A DNA stretch of 37,225 nt from a virus. The translations under genes were made by a program, and so were the position numbers. Within the stretch, counting starts at the first letter, position 1; each line of letters begins with the position of its first letter. The DNA lies in the IMG/VR virus record IMGVR_UViG_3300028027_000125, positions 1 to 37,225 of that record. The stretch is one strand, 5' to 3'. The notes beneath the pieces were generated by a model. It did not search any database and had not been told where the DNA came from. It saw only the letters and a program-made list of their open reading frames with translations. Below, piece after piece: positions 2,522 to 26,598 of this stretch.

Positions 2522-2806
2522 TTAGAAATCATTTTCATTTTGAGATTGATTTTCAAATAATCTTTTAATGGTAATATTTAGAGCCTCGATTTCGTCCATT
2601 TTCTTAATATGCCACATTCTCTTTTGACCATGCCATCCTAATATGGAATTGGTATGGCAGTCTGGACATAATGCTATACAGGTATATTGAAGACCTTGCT
2701 TGTAATGATGGGCTTCAGATGGTCCTGATTTATCACATACTGAACAAGGAAGCATCTTTACTCTAGCAAGATGTAATCTTTCCTTGGCGTTCAGTTTGTT
2801 GTTCAT
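2522..2806 (-). CDS. Small HNH-type / Cys-His zinc protein
   Basis: This 94-residue protein has CSVCDKSGPSEAHH (C21, C24, H33, H34) followed by C43, C47, CPDCH (C47-C50-H51) and a conserved-looking GWHGQKRMW block. This is the layout of small phage HNH nucleases of the Ref/YbcO/NinG kind, which fold around a Cys4 zinc site with a His-metal catalytic centre. It is the last gene of the leftward operon and its start overlaps the stop of the upstream HNH-like gene (ATGA, 2803-2806). A recombination-associated nuclease is the best guess; the exact subfamily is not certain. Confidence 0.7.
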   Translation of the reverse strand: MNNKLNAKERLHLARVKMLPCSVCDKSGPSEAHHYKQGLQYTCIALCPDCHTNSILGWHGQKRMWHIKKMDEIEALNITIKRLFENQSQNENDF

Positions 2807-4941: not shown

Positions 4942-5189
4942 TTTTTCATACCCCTTACGAAAGCAGCAAAACTCTGTGCAGTATCACCAAATGACTTCAT
5001 TAAAGTGAACTCATGGGCTACCTCATCTAGAGTCTGGTTGCGTACAGGACAGTTCCTTCCTTGGGTACAGTCATAAGTGCAACAGTCCATTCCACTAGAT
5101 TTGTTTGCTCTCAATATCTGCTTTCCAAGGTTACTGTTTTGTTCAACCATGTTGAAGGCTTCATCTTCCTCTTTTGTCCATTCAGTCAT
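4938..5189 (-). CDS. Small cysteine-containing phage protein, unknown function
   Basis: This 83-residue protein has an acidic start and a central cluster of cysteines, MDCCTYDCTQGRNCPVR (about 34-50), that could hold a zinc ion or form disulfides. The flanks are helical. It overlaps its upstream neighbour by eight bases and its downstream neighbour by four, the pattern of translational coupling. The family is not recognised. Confidence 0.65.
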   Translation of the reverse strand: MTEWTKEEDEAFNMVEQNSNLGKQILRANKSSGMDCCTYDCTQGRNCPVRNQTLDEVAHEFTLMKSFGDTAQSFAAFVRGMKK

Positions 5190-5562
5190 TCTTGCTCCTT
5201 AGTTTGGCTTCAATGGCTCGGGTTATGTTTACTGTCCTCAAACCTGCAACCATGTACGCATTGCCGTTGTCCACCGCTACGCTGTTTGCAATAAATATTT
5301 GGTGAATCTCCTCATCCGTCAGCGGCTTGCGCTGTGGTGGGGTGGTGTAGACGGGTTCATAGCCATCGTCAGGCTCACTTAGCAAGTCATAGATGTTTCC
5401 TTTGGCGCTTCGTTTTATCCACGCCACAGGCTCATCCTTCGCTTCTAGTGCGGCTTTAATTCCGTTGATGGCTCGTTTTCTGGTGCATTTGCAATCGTCA
5501 GCGCAGATGTCTGACATTTCCAACGCCTCCAATGCAAGGCGTAATGCTTCTGTTTGTGTCAT
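5182..5562 (-). CDS. Phage early protein with MTQTEALRLALEALE start
   Basis: This 126-residue protein begins with MTQTEALRLALEALE, a recurring N-terminal helix in phage early proteins, followed by a Cys pair region (ICADDCKCTRKR) and a segment EPVAWIKR...YTTPPQR commonly seen in tailed-phage hypothetical proteins. No enzymatic motif is visible. The DNA for its first codons is duplicated at the start of the upstream lipoprotein gene (5699-5732). Its start overlaps that gene's stop (ATGA, 5559-5562). Confidence 0.7.
   Translation of the reverse strand: MTQTEALRLALEALEMSDICADDCKCTRKRAINGIKAALEAKDEPVAWIKRSAKGNIYDLLSEPDDGYEPVYTTPPQRKPLTDEEIHQIFIANSVAVDNGNAYMVAGLRTVNITRAIEAKLRSKND
5529..5562 (-). 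repeat. Gene-start repeat, copy 1
   Basis: These 34 bases are the first codons of the 5182-5562 gene. They match 5699-5732 at 31 of 34 positions by eye, including 22 identical bases in a row (5529-5550 and 5699-5720). Confidence 0.85.
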
Positions 5563-5732
5563 TTAGTCACCTCTGTAACACATGTAGTGTGTTTCCAAAT
5601 ACCAGACTCAGCCCAAACGTTTTTGTCCAGTTGGTGGTAAACCTTTCCATTAACACATTTGTAGTCTGAACATCCAGTCAAAAACAACAAACTGAAAGCC
5701 AATGCAAGGCGTAATGCTTCAGTCTGAGTCAT
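5559..5732 (-). CDS. Small lipoprotein with chimeric N-terminus
   Basis: A 57-residue ORF starts after an AAGGGGAC ribosome-site-like stretch. MTQTEALRLA leads into a hydrophobic run and a lipobox (LFLTGC, Cys21), so the mature protein of about 37 residues (CSDYKCVNGKVYHQ...) would be lipid-anchored. Two further cysteines (26 and 51) could form a disulfide. The first eleven residues are shared with the next gene through a DNA duplication. Phage lipoproteins often act in superinfection exclusion or lysis; here the role is unknown. The stop overlaps the next start. Confidence 0.65.
   Translation of the reverse strand: MTQTEALRLALAFSLLFLTGCSDYKCVNGKVYHQLDKNVWAESGIWKHTTCVTEVTK
5699..5732 (-). 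repeat. Gene-start repeat, copy 2
   Basis: This is the second copy of the 34-base repeat at 5529-5562. Here it encodes the first residues of the small lipoprotein, in the same frame as in copy 1. Confidence 0.85.
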
Positions 5733-5743
5733 GCTTGTCCCCT

Positions 5744-5950
5744 TTAATAGAAATAGTACAATGTTTCTCGGCTAATCTCAGACCACCATGCCTGATTCCC
5801 ACCAGCAGAAATAAAATATTTTTCAGTTATTTGATAAGTTTCAAGCCAAACAAAGTAGTCACCAACTTTTGTTTTTTTCCAAGCAAATACTCGTCTAGTC
5901 CTAGTGTCGCCATTCTTAGGTAGCTTGGGTTCTTGGACTTTCCATTTCAT
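5744..5950 (-). CDS. Small aromatic-rich protein, unknown function
   Basis: Starting at 5950 the product has 68 residues (MKWKVQEPKLPKNGDTRTRR...). It is basic and rich in Trp and Tyr, with beta-like alternation (FAWKKTKVGDYFVWLETY). An earlier in-frame ATG at 5983 was rejected because AAGGGG lies suitably before 5950 and that ATG overlaps the upstream stop (ATGA, 5947-5950). Similar short proteins occur in phage early regions; the function is unknown. Confidence 0.65.
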   Translation of the reverse strand: MKWKVQEPKLPKNGDTRTRRVFAWKKTKVGDYFVWLETYQITEKYFISAGGNQAWWSEISRETLYYFY

Positions 5951-6156
5951 GCTTGTCCCCTTGCTCGGATAGCTTCGGCACATTCATATGCAGTACCGTC
6001 ATCTTCCCAAAGATCATCACACACTACTGCACACGCCTCACGCTCATTCTGTGCCACAAGAAAAGCAAAGCGTTCAAACATCAATTGACATTTATCAATT
6101 TCCTCATCAGAAAATCCAACTTTTTTAGCTATCTTAGTAATTTCGTTTTGCGTCAT
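5947..6156 (-). CDS. Small helical phage protein, unknown function
   Basis: A 69-residue protein from the ATG at 6156: MTQNEITKIAKKVGFSDEEI, then FAFLVAQNEREACAVVCDD. This matches a widespread phage family with a two-helix start and an EREACA segment; no function is known to me. The longer frame from 6192 was rejected because 6156 overlaps the stop of the upstream small gene (ATGA). Confidence 0.7.
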   Translation of the reverse strand: MTQNEITKIAKKVGFSDEEIDKCQLMFERFAFLVAQNEREACAVVCDDLWEDDGTAYECAEAIRARGQA

Positions 6157-10775: not shown

Positions 10776-10785
10776 AGGAGTGAAT

Positions 10786-11403
10786 ATGTCAATAGAGGCG
10801 TTACTTAAAAAAGATGTTAATTCTCATACAGAGAAGAAAAACAACCTTACCTACTTGTCATGGGCTTGGGCATGGGCAGAGGCTCTCAAAGCTGATCCTA
10901 CAGCGTCCTACAAGGTAGAAATGTTTGGTGACAAGTGTTTCATGGACATCAATGGTACGGCAATGGTATTTGTTACTGCCACCATGTTTGGCAAACCAAT
11001 GACCTGCCAACTTCCTGTGATGGACTATCGGAATAAAGCCATACCCAATCCTGATGCTTTCCAAGTCAATACAGCCATCATGCGTTGTATGACAAAAGCA
11101 CTTAGCTTGCATGGACTCGGTTTATACATCTATGCAGGTGAGGACCTTCCAGAAGAGGGTGGACGACCAGATAAAGTGGTCATCACACCAACACAAGGTG
11201 CAACAGACAATATTCCTCCAGAGGAATTACAGTACTTGCAAGAGTTAGCAGTTGAACTGATTGCTACTTGTGAGCAAGGTGATCCCAAGGCAGCTTGGGT
11301 TAAGTTGGAAGGAGAAAACTTGGATGATCAACAAAAGATTGCCCTGTGGACACTCCTCCCCAGTAAAGTGCGTTCATCATTAAAGAAAGCTAAGGAAATT
11401 TAA
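10786..11403 (+). CDS. Single-strand annealing protein, Sak3/DUF1071 type
   Basis: The 205-residue protein has the DUF1071/Sak3 marks: LTYLSWAWAWAEAL (21-34), a central VEMFGDKCFMDINGTAMVF region, and NTAIMRCMTKALSLHGLGLY (95-114) followed by IYAGEDLP. Such proteins pair complementary single strands in phage recombination, like Erf or Red-beta in role. A C-terminal helical tail may contact SSB. The start at 10786 has AGGAG five bases upstream; the GTG at 10780 overlaps that site and was rejected. The stop overlaps the next start (TAATG). No partner exonuclease is seen. Confidence 0.8.
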   Translation: MSIEALLKKDVNSHTEKKNNLTYLSWAWAWAEALKADPTASYKVEMFGDKCFMDINGTAMVFVTATMFGKPMTCQLPVMDYRNKAIPNPDAFQVNTAIMRCMTKALSLHGLGLYIYAGEDLPEEGGRPDKVVITPTQGATDNIPPEELQYLQELAVELIATCEQGDPKAAWVKLEGENLDDQQKIALWTLLPSKVRSSLKKAKEI

Positions 11404-19032: not shown

Positions 19033-20907
19033 TTAAATACCAAGCGCACCAAGCAAACCTTGGCGTGAACCAGAAGTTGTTTGCATTCCAGATCCACCAC
19101 CAATGTTGAGTCCCAACGCCTGATTGATAATCTGTTGTTGTTCCAAAGGCAGATTGCGGATTGCATCCAATTGCTGTTGTGTGTACTGCTGTTGGAATTG
19201 ACCTTGAGCCGCCAAGTTCTGAGCGCCTTGGAAGCCCATCTGTTGAGCATTCTGAGCAATACCTGCCATTTGACCTGCGGCAGCTAAGTTCTGCTGATTA
19301 CCCGCTAAACCTGCTTGTTGGTTAGCCAAGTTTGCTTGCAAGAAGTTTTGCTGATTAGCTAAACCTGCTTGTTGTGTCAAACCTGCTTGTTGAGCATTAG
19401 CCGCATTGATTGCCGCTTGGTTAGCCAAACCTGCCTGATTAAATGCAGAAGCACCAAACTGACCTGCTTGATTCAAAGCACCCATGTTTGCCAAGTTGGT
19501 TGCTTGTTGATTGCCCGCATTGAACTGAGCCATCTGGTTCTGAGCAGCAGCGTTCTGTGCGGCAATAGTGTTTTGAGCGCCAGCACCAAACTGAGCGGCT
19601 TGATTGGCAGCGGCTTGAGTTGACAAACCTGCTTGCTGAAGCTGTTGGGCATTAAATTGAGCCATTTGGTTTTGTGCCGCTTGGTTTGACAAGTCTGCAA
19701 CATTACCTGCTTGAGCGCCAAACTGAGCCGCCTGATTAGCCGCAGCTTGAGAGGCCAATCCTGCTTGTTGGAGGTTACCAACATTGAATTGTGCCATCTG
19801 ATTTTGAGCCGCTTGGTTAGCCAGATTAGCTTGCTGTTGAGCTTGCATATTAGCCTGACCAGTACTGACATCAACACCTTGATTAGCCAATGCCGCACGT
19901 AGACTTGCATCTTGGTTAGCCAAACCAAACTGACCAGACAGAGCCAAAGCCTGTTGGGTAGTGGCGGCATCTTGTGCTTGATTAAGTTGTTGAGCTTGCA
20001 TAGCTCTAGACAAATCAGCCTCAGAAGCTTGTTGAGCGGCTTGGTAAGCGGCAGCGTTCTGTTGGGCAACCAAACGAGCGGCATTCTCACCAAAGGCTCG
20101 ATTAGTCTCTGCTTCAGCAACACCTTGGCGTGAACCACCAAAGGCTTTAGCCGCAGTAGCACTAGCAGCAGTCTGTTGTTGTTGCAATTGTCTAGAACGC
20201 TCTAGATCTCTCAAAGATTGATTTGTGACTTCTTCAGTATAAGGATTCATGTACTGCTGAACATTCTGGTTTAAGAATGAACCTGCCTGTACATCACGAA
20301 TATTCTGACGAGCTTGTGGAGCAATCTGACCCAGAGCAGTAGAGGCTACTTGTTGACCAGAAACACCTGCCGCACCAACTTCACGAACAGTATCTCTATT
20401 CATTTGAGCGGCAAGAGCCTGTGCTGAAGGACCTGCTTGTTGTCCAGTAAATCCTAATGAGGTATAGCCTTGACCCCTAGCGGTAGCGGCAGGACCTGCC
20501 TGTTGACCAGTAAAACCAAGAGACTGATAACCAGTGGCTTGTGCTTGTGTAGCAGGACCAGCAGAAGCTGATTGAGCCGTAGCAGGGTTATAGCCTGTCT
20601 GAGCCGCCATAGCAGATGGAGCTACTTGAGCGCCACCAAATTGTTGTGCTTGAACATTTTGAGGCTGATAGTTTGCCGCTCTGTTGGCGACATCAAATGA
20701 AGCACCAATACCTTGGAATATGGCATTGTTTGGATTAGCAAAATCTCTGGTTAACTGAGTTGCACGTGCTTGATCTTGGTTGTATCCCGCAAACTGGCGA
20801 GGAGCTAATTCTCCTGCAACATCTCTGGATGTTTGCACATTTTGCAAGTAAGCATCACGCAATGCAGGATCAAGCTGCGCTGTTTGTTGACTAGAACCAC
20901 CAGACAT
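19033..20907 (-). CDS. Ala/Gln-rich repetitive internal virion protein
   Basis: A 624-residue protein, strikingly rich in Ala, Gln and Asn. It has an internal duplication of LGFTGQQAGP (two copies spaced about 20 residues near 136-166) and three long repeats containing NQMAQFN and AANQAAQFGA (about 46 residues each). It should form extended helices. Its place among ejection proteins suggests it is packed in the head. The start is set at 20907 because GGAGGTG lies just upstream, itself inside the last codons of the previous gene; the ATG at 20931 precedes that site. Confidence 0.65.
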   Translation of the reverse strand: MSGGSSQQTAQLDPALRDAYLQNVQTSRDVAGELAPRQFAGYNQDQARATQLTRDFANPNNAIFQGIGASFDVANRAANYQPQNVQAQQFGGAQVAPSAMAAQTGYNPATAQSASAGPATQAQATGYQSLGFTGQQAGPAATARGQGYTSLGFTGQQAGPSAQALAAQMNRDTVREVGAAGVSGQQVASTALGQIAPQARQNIRDVQAGSFLNQNVQQYMNPYTEEVTNQSLRDLERSRQLQQQQTAASATAAKAFGGSRQGVAEAETNRAFGENAARLVAQQNAAAYQAAQQASEADLSRAMQAQQLNQAQDAATTQQALALSGQFGLANQDASLRAALANQGVDVSTGQANMQAQQQANLANQAAQNQMAQFNVGNLQQAGLASQAAANQAAQFGAQAGNVADLSNQAAQNQMAQFNAQQLQQAGLSTQAAANQAAQFGAGAQNTIAAQNAAAQNQMAQFNAGNQQATNLANMGALNQAGQFGASAFNQAGLANQAAINAANAQQAGLTQQAGLANQQNFLQANLANQQAGLAGNQQNLAAAGQMAGIAQNAQQMGFQGAQNLAAQGQFQQQYTQQQLDAIRNLPLEQQQIINQALGLNIGGGSGMQTTSGSRQGLLGALGI

Positions 20908-24651: not shown

Positions 24652-26598
24652 TTACAGATTTGCGGCATCCAAACGTGCCTTGAGTGATTCAATGATTGCT
24701 TGTTGTTCTTGAATGGCGGCTGTTAATGTAGCCACCAAGAATGATGTGTCGATGCCTTGAGGCTTAATTGAGCCATCTTCATTTACTGCGTCTTTTTCAC
24801 CTACTACGCACTCTGGCACAACAGCCTGAAGTTCGTGAGCAATAAAGCCCTCACCATCAGAGCCATCAGCATTCCATTTGTAAGTGATGGGCTTAAGTTG
24901 AGCAACCTTAGCCAATGCACCCGTCATTGGGGCAATTGAATTCTTTAGGCGGTAGTCAGAGGATGTACTGTATGTAGTGTTTGAACCATTTGTATTTATA
25001 GAACCAACGGGAGATAAACCAGTTCCATAAGTAAAGTACAAGAAATTACCAGTTGAAGCAGTTCTGTTTATATGGAAACAAGTACCACCTCCGCCCCCTG
25101 AGGTAGTACGATAAAAAGAAGTATCACCATCGCTAACAACAGTTAGTTTTTCACTTACGTTTCCAATGGTTGTTGTTGCGTTAATTCTCAAACCACCGTC
25201 TGCGGTTATACGAATACGTTCGCCCCATGTAACATTATTTTGTGTCCAAAAAGCCAAAGCACCAGAGCCGCTTGCATACGCAGGAGCAATAATTGAAGAA
25301 GTGTCTGCGTTGTTGTAGCCTAACAAAATTCCTTTTTCGGCTGATGTAGCGGCGTTACGAAATTGAGCAGTAAGGTAAAAATTGCCGTCATATGCAAAAC
25401 CGCCAATTACATCTAACTTTGCCACAGGGCTCGTATTTCCAATACCAAGATCGCCATCGGCATCCAGAGTCATTGCCTGAGTAAAGGTAATGGCGTTTCC
25501 TGCTGTGCCTGATGGGGCGTTGTACCATTGGTGAGCACCGCTTTGTTGTTGGTAAAGCGTTGAGACGGCTGTACTTTTATAAATCCAAGAAGTTCCGTTG
25601 TAATACGCATTTGATGCAATAGCAAAAGTGCCACCATTGGAAATTGCGGCATTGCTACCTATGTCAAAGCCTTTAAATACACCCCAAGCACTAGGAGTAA
25701 CTCCCAAGCCTAGATTGCCTGAGGAGTCGAGGGTGGCGTTGACTGTGTTGTTAGTGCCAAGTGTTAAAGTGTTTGTAGACAATGAGCGCAAGAACAAAGA
25801 ATTGGCAGGGCTATTTGCTGAACTCGTCAAAGAAATAGCGCCTAAGTCTCCACCATTGTTGGTGAATAAAACACCAGCCGCTGCACCAGAACCAGTATTG
25901 GTGTTGGCTACTTTTATCCAAGTAGATGAATTTGCATTGTTTTCAACATGAAGTTTCTGAGCAGGACTACTTGTACCAATACCCAGACCTGTGCTGGTTA
26001 GGCGCATTTGTTCTGTGCCAGCAGGTGACCAAATACAGTTTTGGCTTGAATCCAAAACCATGCCGATAGTTGCAGAAGACCCAGAACCAAATGACATACC
26101 GCCACTTGAGTTACCTTCAATGTAGCCTCTGAAAGTATTTCCACTTCGGATAGTAATGTTTGGTGAACCTGAAGTTGGGTTTATATCAAGACTTCCAGCA
26201 GCCCCTGTGACTGCAAAAGTAGTACCACTAAAACTCAGCGCAGAACCGCTTGTAACAACCTTAGAGCCGTTTAAATACGCCACTCCGTTAGCAGTACCTC
26301 CAGAGAGGGTTACAGCACCAGAAGCCGATAAAGTAGTAAACGCACCAGTATCTGCTGTTGTAGCGCCAATGGCAGTCGCATCAATAGTGCTAGATGCACC
26401 AGTAACAACCAGTGTTCCTGCTACTGATAATGTCTTACCAGAACCAACATTTAGACCAACACTAGTACCAGTGCCATCACCCTTAAATACAGCATCTACT
26501 GTATCTAAGTCAGTATTAATCTTAGTACCCCATGTGTCGGTAGAAGCACCAACTTCTGGTTTGGTAAGTCCTAGGTTGGTCGTTGTGGAATCTGCCAT
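24652..26598 (-). CDS. Tail fibre with C-terminal S74 intramolecular chaperone
   Basis: A 648-residue, Thr/Ser/Gly-rich protein whose body looks like an extended beta-structured fibre. The last about 100 residues are a peptidase S74 (ICA) domain: [12 protein letters not shown] (547-558), [21 protein letters not shown] and a final coiled coil ([20 protein letters not shown]). The S74 domain trimerises the fibre and then cuts itself off before Ser547. It is likely to be the host-receptor fibre. The start [20 protein letters not shown] is a typical fibre head that attaches to the tail. Confidence 0.85.

What the first reader, a model, noticed from the sequence alone, without database searches (positions are those of the whole stretch)
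5529..5732. Lipoprotein gene that borrowed its start from a neighbour
34 bases covering the start of the 5182-5562 gene recur in frame at the start of the adjacent lipoprotein gene (31/34, with 22 identical in a row). MTQTEALRLA thus became the front of a signal peptide. This captures gene-end exchange in action.
Basis: seen in the sequence. Interest (0 to 1): 0.62.

Follow-up and report, generated by a model that had tools for sequence, protein, structure and literature searches.

The report
Shared gene-start joint shuffles phage genes
The repeated 34 letters are one copy of a short, in-frame gene-start sequence found in at least 119 environmental phage contigs, where unrelated genes (two lipoproteins, a DNA-binding protein and a patchwork gene) have been swapped in and out, so the lipoprotein's start comes from a shared splice point and was not newly copied from its neighbour.

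Summary
The reading 'borrowed from the neighbour, caught in the act' is half right. The 19-nt core (GCATTACGCCTTGCATTGG, encoding ALRLAL) occurs in at least 119 viral contigs from 83 metagenomes, but only once, at chance level, in 84,980 prokaryote species genomes. All seven homologous lipoprotein loci carry ALRLAL, so that part is not recent; only the first five codons vary locally. The same start sits on unrelated genes: a patchwork 'ALEALE' gene, this lipoprotein, a second unrelated lipoprotein and an HTH_3 protein; the last two also exist without it. Identity is at background up to the ATG, high for 45 nt, then background again, and the two flanks are almost unlinked. Filled and empty sites were found (L196/L129, L004/L145, window/L117). 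The ALEALE gene has further constant linkers between variable modules: 42 genes, 42 combinations. Best explanation: homologous recombination at short shared gene-end sequences, probably helped by phage annealing proteins (Sak in this window). The principle is known; this form, within coding sequence and very widespread, is a new variant. The ALEALE protein's function is unknown.

The parts
5699..5732 (-). Start block, copy 1: ATGACTCAGACTGAAGCATTACGCCTTGCATTGG, first 11 codons of the lipoprotein gene
   Evidence: 31/34 to copy 2; 34/34 to the start of the ALEALE gene in L008
5559..5732 (-). Lipoprotein I gene, 57 aa, lipobox LTGC; no family in PHROGs or Pfam above cut-off
   Evidence: Translation; seven homologous loci in IMG/VR; purifying selection on the mature part
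5529..5562 (-). Start block, copy 2: ATGACACAAACAGAAGCATTACGCCTTGCATTGG, first 11 codons of the ALEALE gene
5182..5562 (-). ALEALE patchwork gene, 126 aa: start block, variable module, linker, variable module, linker, variable module
   Evidence: relatives share single modules in different combinations
5427..5473 (-). Internal linker 1 of the ALEALE gene (IKAALEAKDEPVAW region)
   Evidence: Conserved DNA word in 67 of 102 distinct ALEALE genes; matches many unrelated relatives at this place only
5305..5349 (-). Internal linker 2 of the ALEALE gene (TPPQRKPLTDEEI region)
5729..5744 (-). AAGGGGACAAGCATGA: ribosome-binding region and start of the lipoprotein gene, second kind of shared joint, also at 5947-5962
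   Evidence: Direct repeat; precedes 26 distinct gene starts in the fetched loci
5563..6156 (-). 594 nt (MTQNEITK gene, MKWKVQ gene, lipoprotein) absent from L117, whose flanks match on both sides at 87-90%
10780..11403 (+). Sak-type single-strand annealing protein, candidate catalyst of the exchanges
   Evidence: Pfam PF06378, E 1e-39

Best explanation
The repeated 34 nt are two copies of a shared gene-start joint. A block of about 45 nt, starting at the ATG (MTKDE or MTQTE, then ALRLAL, then EALE in the commonest gene), is carried by many phages. Genes are gained, lost or replaced by homologous recombination inside this block, and at further short shared sequences at gene ends and inside the ALEALE gene. 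Because every joint keeps the same reading frame, any gene body that joins at the core receives a working start; in this lipoprotein the block became the front of the signal peptide. In the window, a cassette (core, lipoprotein body, next start block) sits in front of the ALEALE gene, which leaves the block present twice, 170 nt apart. Shown by sequence: the shared block on unrelated genes, its sharp edges, near-absence of linkage across it, filled and empty sites. Inferred: that homologous recombination did it, that the first five codons came from the recipient site, that Sak/Erf-type annealing proteins help, and that the lipoprotein is lipidated.
For: Core in at least 119 viral contigs from 83 metagenomes, one chance-level match in 257 Gb of prokaryote genomes. 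In frame near an ATG in nearly all viral instances. Four unrelated gene kinds carry it. HTH relatives L180-L184 and most lipoprotein II relatives lack it. Identity falls to background on both sides. Contigs alike downstream are alike upstream in 4% of pairs, against 36-81% for control segments on one side. Filled/empty pairs L196/L129, L004/L145, window/L117. Module combinations in ALEALE genes. Annealing proteins Sak, Erf or a Sak4-like AAA_24 protein in 16 of 26 long records, Sak in the window.
Against: No exchange was observed directly; all is comparative. Ten of 26 long records have none of the annealing families tested. The core is fixed by the way the instances were collected, so its conservation is overstated in that set. 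Lipoprotein I has no relative without the core, so its capture of the core is not shown for this family itself. L008, the relative with the same 34-nt start, shares little of the window's left flank.
Confidence: 0.82

Rival explanations
1. Recent local duplication: the start of the ALEALE gene was copied onto the adjacent lipoprotein in this genome or its close ancestors.
For: The two copies are adjacent and 91% identical.
Against: All homologous lipoproteins carry the core, in other contigs and with other neighbours; copy 1 is identical to the start in L008 and differs from its own neighbour at three sites.
Confidence: 0.06
2. Functional constraint without exchange: the block is a translation-start, regulatory or protein-binding element that stays identical while the flanks diverge.
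For: Always at a start codon; the commonest form contains an inverted repeat ACGCCTT-GCATTG-GAGGCGT; no synonymous change in core codons among most lipoprotein pairs.
Against: Lipoprotein and HTH copies break the inverted repeat, and the lipoprotein copy does not fold better than shuffles (z -0.8); diverged forms exist (GCATTGAATTTGGCATTGG and others); unrelated downstream genes and filled/empty sites need exchange in any case.
Confidence: 0.05
3. Assembly chimeras: short shared words in mixed viromes made assemblers join unrelated phages at the block.
For: Nearly all data are metagenomic contigs, and some contigs end in or near the block (L004, L005).
Against: The same junctions recur in different metagenomes, for example HTH with the GCTPM upstream end in L011, L052, L073 and L115; pairs such as L084/L137 and L074/L141 keep coherent 80-90% identity on both sides of the swapped gene, which random joins would not give.
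Confidence: 0.04
4. A dedicated site-specific recombinase acts on the block, in the manner of an integron or phase-variation system.
For: Cassette-like insertion that leaves the block duplicated.
Against: Other linkers of unlike sequence behave the same way; the inverted repeat is not conserved. Integrases linked to the block were not searched for.
Confidence: 0.03

Closest known systems
Short conserved boundary sequences ('linkers') in lambdoid phages (Susskind and Botstein 1978; Clark et al. 2001; both as cited in PMC3029335)
   Same: Short conserved sequences at gene boundaries are proposed as sites where homologous recombination swaps modules
   Different: Here the joint lies inside coding sequence at the start codon, is shared by at least four unrelated gene kinds, and similar joints lie inside one gene. 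The original papers were not read here
Mycobacteriophage Island3 genes 67/68 against Brujita (PMC3029335)
   Same: About 60 bp repeated at the ends of two neighbouring unrelated genes, single copy in the relative: a filled and an empty site
   Different: 3' end and not start codon; a single case, not a family-wide joint
PeSL promoter/stem-loop cassettes of T4-type phages (Arbiol 2010, Comeau 2014, as cited in PMC4503421)
   Same: Repeated short sequences between genes mediate gene shuffling
   Different: PeSLs are non-coding promoter and stem-loop motifs; this block is coding. Original papers not held
Relaxed recombination by Rad52-like phage proteins (PMC2327257, PMC3945230)
   Same: Phage annealing proteins drive exchanges over short and diverged sequences; the window encodes Sak
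   Different: Those are laboratory assays and E. coli phage comparisons; no fixed in-frame joint is described in the parts read

Membership tests
Boundary-sequence (linker) mosaicism of phages | Short sequence conserved between otherwise unrelated flanks | tested here: met
   Position profile over 115 instances
Boundary-sequence (linker) mosaicism of phages | Exchange breakpoints of related genomes fall at that sequence | tested here: met
   L196/L129, L004/L145, L047/L199, L084/L137, L074/L141, window/L117
Boundary-sequence (linker) mosaicism of phages | Exchange made by homologous recombination enzymes | not testable with these tools
   Annealing proteins present in 16 of 26 long records, which is only suggestive
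T4-type PeSL cassettes | Promoter plus stem-loop between genes | tested here: not met
   The block is coding, begins at the ATG, and the lipoprotein copy has no significant fold
Bacterial lipoprotein (lipoprotein I) | Signal peptide with lipobox ending in Cys | tested here: met
   LTGC at residues 18-21, invariant in the seven aligned sequences, six homologues and the window; only one basic residue before the hydrophobic part
Bacterial lipoprotein (lipoprotein I) | Lipidation and export | not tested
   Needs palmitate labelling
Integron-type cassette | Conserved folded recombination site next to the cassette, and a tyrosine integrase | tested here: inconclusive
   Hairpin only in the ALEALE form; an integrase was not searched for

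The most novel reading that the evidence does not exclude
A maintained combinatorial gene-building system: a set of fixed in-frame DNA joints (gene start, two internal linkers, gene end with the next ribosome-binding site) kept because they let phages reassemble a fast-changing gene and swap neighbouring genes, so that a start peptide can also serve as part of a transferable signal peptide.
Probability: 0.2. Interest if true: 0.8.

Novelty: new variant of a known kind. Interest (0 to 1): 0.6.

Why it matters
[quoted passage not shown] Here the boundary sequence is plainly visible, sits in frame at start codons, and has filled and empty sites in several independent pairs. That makes the question testable in a laboratory phage. 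It also shows how a protein can gain a new N-terminus, here part of a signal peptide, from a recombination joint.

Tried and rejected
Named phages: no match for the locus DNA, lipoprotein I, the ALEALE protein, a second ALEALE protein or the HTH protein; the record with the nearest terminase (MW202879, 72%) was listed but its annotation names no counterpart. Bacterial genomes: one core match, in a planctomycete MAG, where no start codon precedes it; about two are expected by chance in 257 Gb (the expectation is my arithmetic). The weak Pfam match of the lipoprotein (E217_gp28, E 0.08) and the weak PHROG and Pfam matches of ALEALE proteins were not used. L194 was a false partial match to lipoprotein I. 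No Rfam family in the window. A hairpin as the reason for conservation is not supported in the lipoprotein copy. The 2014 PeSL paper is not held.

Full report
What was checked. The two 34-nt stretches are at the stated coordinates, on the minus strand, 31/34 identical with 22 in a row, each beginning at an ATG and in frame. The lipoprotein is 57 aa with lipobox LTGC; its TGA overlaps the ATG of the next gene. Chance is excluded.

The lipoprotein's relatives. Searches of IMG/VR with the whole protein, and with the mature part alone, gave the same seven homologous loci. All read ALRLALA[FL]S before the lipobox; six have the core DNA GCATTACGCCTTGCATTGG exactly, and L001 has a single change. The first codons differ: MTQTE, MTKDE, MIKDE, MDKDI, MKDT. 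So the core was joined to this lipoprotein before these relatives parted, or has spread among them since, and only the very first codons are local. The mature part is under purifying selection (dN/dS 0.04-0.55) with many synonymous changes (pS 0.22-0.53), while core codons 6-11 show none in most pairs. With only about five synonymous sites in the core this contrast is suggestive, not strong; it fits homogenisation by exchange or constraint.

The core is a common gene start. In 84,980 prokaryote species genomes it occurs once, away from any start. Nearly every viral instance lies in frame 4-15 codons after an ATG; the exceptions are contig edges or a TTG start. Most instances belong to a gene family I call ALEALE (MTKDEALRLALEALE...), which includes the window's 5182-5562 gene. 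Others are lipoprotein I, an unrelated lipoprotein II (CNKHTDANG..., L196 and L197), and an HTH_3 protein (DEKVTLGEYLRGLRL...; Pfam E 2.8e-10).

The block was added to other genes. Lipoprotein II belongs to a wider family (phrog_10627, motif KYNDWDEVV) found in many phages with ordinary signal peptides such as MKKLLIVMFVLALTAC and MSKPIILLVLAIALTGC; only L209 and L210 (the same contigs as L196 and L197) have the ALRLAL start. HTH relatives L180-L184 lack the block and begin at or near TLGEYLRGL. Two forms of the signal-peptide DNA (AGCCTATTG and AGCATATTG) each occur on both lipoproteins, which points to exchange at the border between signal peptide and mature part as well.

Sharp edges and little linkage. 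Over 115 distinct instances, mean identity per position is 0.25-0.3 upstream, rising slightly in the ribosome-binding region; it is about 0.4-1.0 for the 45 nt from the ATG (the core itself is fixed by the search), and background after that. Clustering gives 83 upstream and 66 downstream types in 111 combinations. Two contigs alike downstream are alike upstream in 4% of cases, while segments on one side of the block go together in 36-81%. The remaining association is still slightly above random (3 pairs against 0.5 expected, P 0.02), as it should be if exchange is frequent but not instant.

Filled and empty sites. L196 and L129 share about 2.3 kb at 90-94% up to the core; L129 then has ALEALE, while L196 has lipoprotein II, a second start block and ALEALE. 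L004 and L145 share 1.55 kb at 87% up to the core, then lipoprotein I or ALEALE. For the window, L117 matches 6607-6142 at 87%, goes straight into its own ALEALE gene, and matches again from 5214 to 4121 at 89-90%; the window has 594 nt more (6156-5563: the MTQNEITK gene, the MKWKVQ gene and the lipoprotein). L008 has the window lipoprotein's exact 34-nt start on its ALEALE gene, and only these two of 121 distinct start sites have that 15-nt beginning. L008 resembles the window's ALEALE gene and downstream genes over 1.1 kb (84%), but its left flank is mostly different, so I call it a probable, not proven, picture of the site before insertion. The window's second copy (ATGACACAAACAGAA) is one base from the start that follows lipoprotein I in L002 and L006 (ATGACACAGACAGAA), as expected if it came with the lipoprotein cassette. 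That step is inference.

The ALEALE gene is itself a patchwork. Words shared by many of 102 distinct genes form the start block, an internal linker (AITAIKAALEAKDEPVA, 67 genes), a second internal linker (YTTPPQRTWVGLTDE or TPPQRKPLTDEEI) and an end (AIEAKLKEKNT* or ARAIEAAHGIKGEA*). In 42 genes with all joints, 33 first, 35 second and 35 third modules gave 42 different combinations. L084/L137 and L074/L141 show replacement of the gene or its modules in collinear backbones. The end linker AAGGAGAAGAACACATGA, which holds a ribosome-binding site and the next ATG, precedes 54 distinct gene starts, and AAGGGGACAAGCATGA precedes 26; the window has the latter twice, around the MKWKVQ gene.

Mechanism. 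Homologous recombination at short shared sequence is the simplest account. The window encodes a Sak annealing protein and a RusA resolvase. Of 26 long records that carry the block (window included), 7 have Sak, 6 Erf, 3 a Sak4-like AAA_24 protein above cut-off, and none RecT, so no single recombinase is tied to it. Published laboratory work shows that such phage proteins recombine short and diverged sequences (PMC2327257, PMC3945230). Whether the joints are kept because they allow exchange, or are only a by-product, cannot be told here. An inverted repeat in the ALEALE form of the block is absent from the lipoprotein and HTH copies.

What is known. Boundary sequences were proposed for lambdoid phages, and Island3 genes 67/68 with Brujita are a close precedent: about 60 bp repeated at the ends of two neighbouring unrelated genes, single in the relative. 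The present case differs in lying at the start codon in coding sequence, in its breadth, and in the joints inside one gene. I file it as a new variant of a known kind. My literature search covered only open-licence PMC papers, so an earlier description could have been missed.

Limits. Collection by exact core match fixes identity within the core. Nearly all relatives are metagenomic contigs; chimeras are unlikely for recurring junctions, but single cases could be.

Noticed in passing
window 5747-5953 (minus strand), with 5729-5744 and 5947-5962: A small gene (MKWKVQEPKL..., weak phrog_11031 match) is bracketed by a 16-nt direct repeat AAGGGGACAAGCATGA; an 80% identical stretch lies elsewhere in L008 (139-337), so the gene seems to have moved between such repeats.
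   Followed up: partly
fetched loci; not in the window as an exact copy: AAGGAGAAGAACACATGA, the end of many ALEALE genes plus the next ribosome-binding site and ATG, stands before 54 distinct gene starts.
   Followed up: partly
L209-L233: Lipoprotein II (KYNDWDEVV motif, phrog_10627) is a widespread small phage lipoprotein of unknown function, also in 172-177 kb contigs and with distant matches in named Erwinia, Cronobacter, Pseudomonas and Xanthomonas phages.
   Followed up: partly
L169-L177: HTH relatives carry other start peptides of the same style (MTDKEAMAMAL, MTHIEAMKHAL), which suggests a second, diverged start block.
   Followed up: no
window 5521-5547 (minus strand): The ALEALE form of the block contains an inverted repeat ACGCCTT-GCATTG-GAGGCGT; the region folds somewhat better than shuffles (z -2.3) in the window's ALEALE copy.
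   Followed up: partly
window 2778-2803 (minus strand) against 5683-5708: A 26-nt, 88% match between the start of the 2522-2806 gene and the complementary strand of the lipoprotein gene; probably chance.
   Followed up: no
window 19311-19950: Degenerate repeats in steps of 66 and 132 nt inside the 19033-20931 gene.
   Followed up: no
window 24652-26598 (minus strand): 648-aa protein with a repetitive body and a C-terminal [13 protein letters not shown] stretch that recalls an intramolecular chaperone end of phage tail fibres (from memory, not tested).
   Followed up: no
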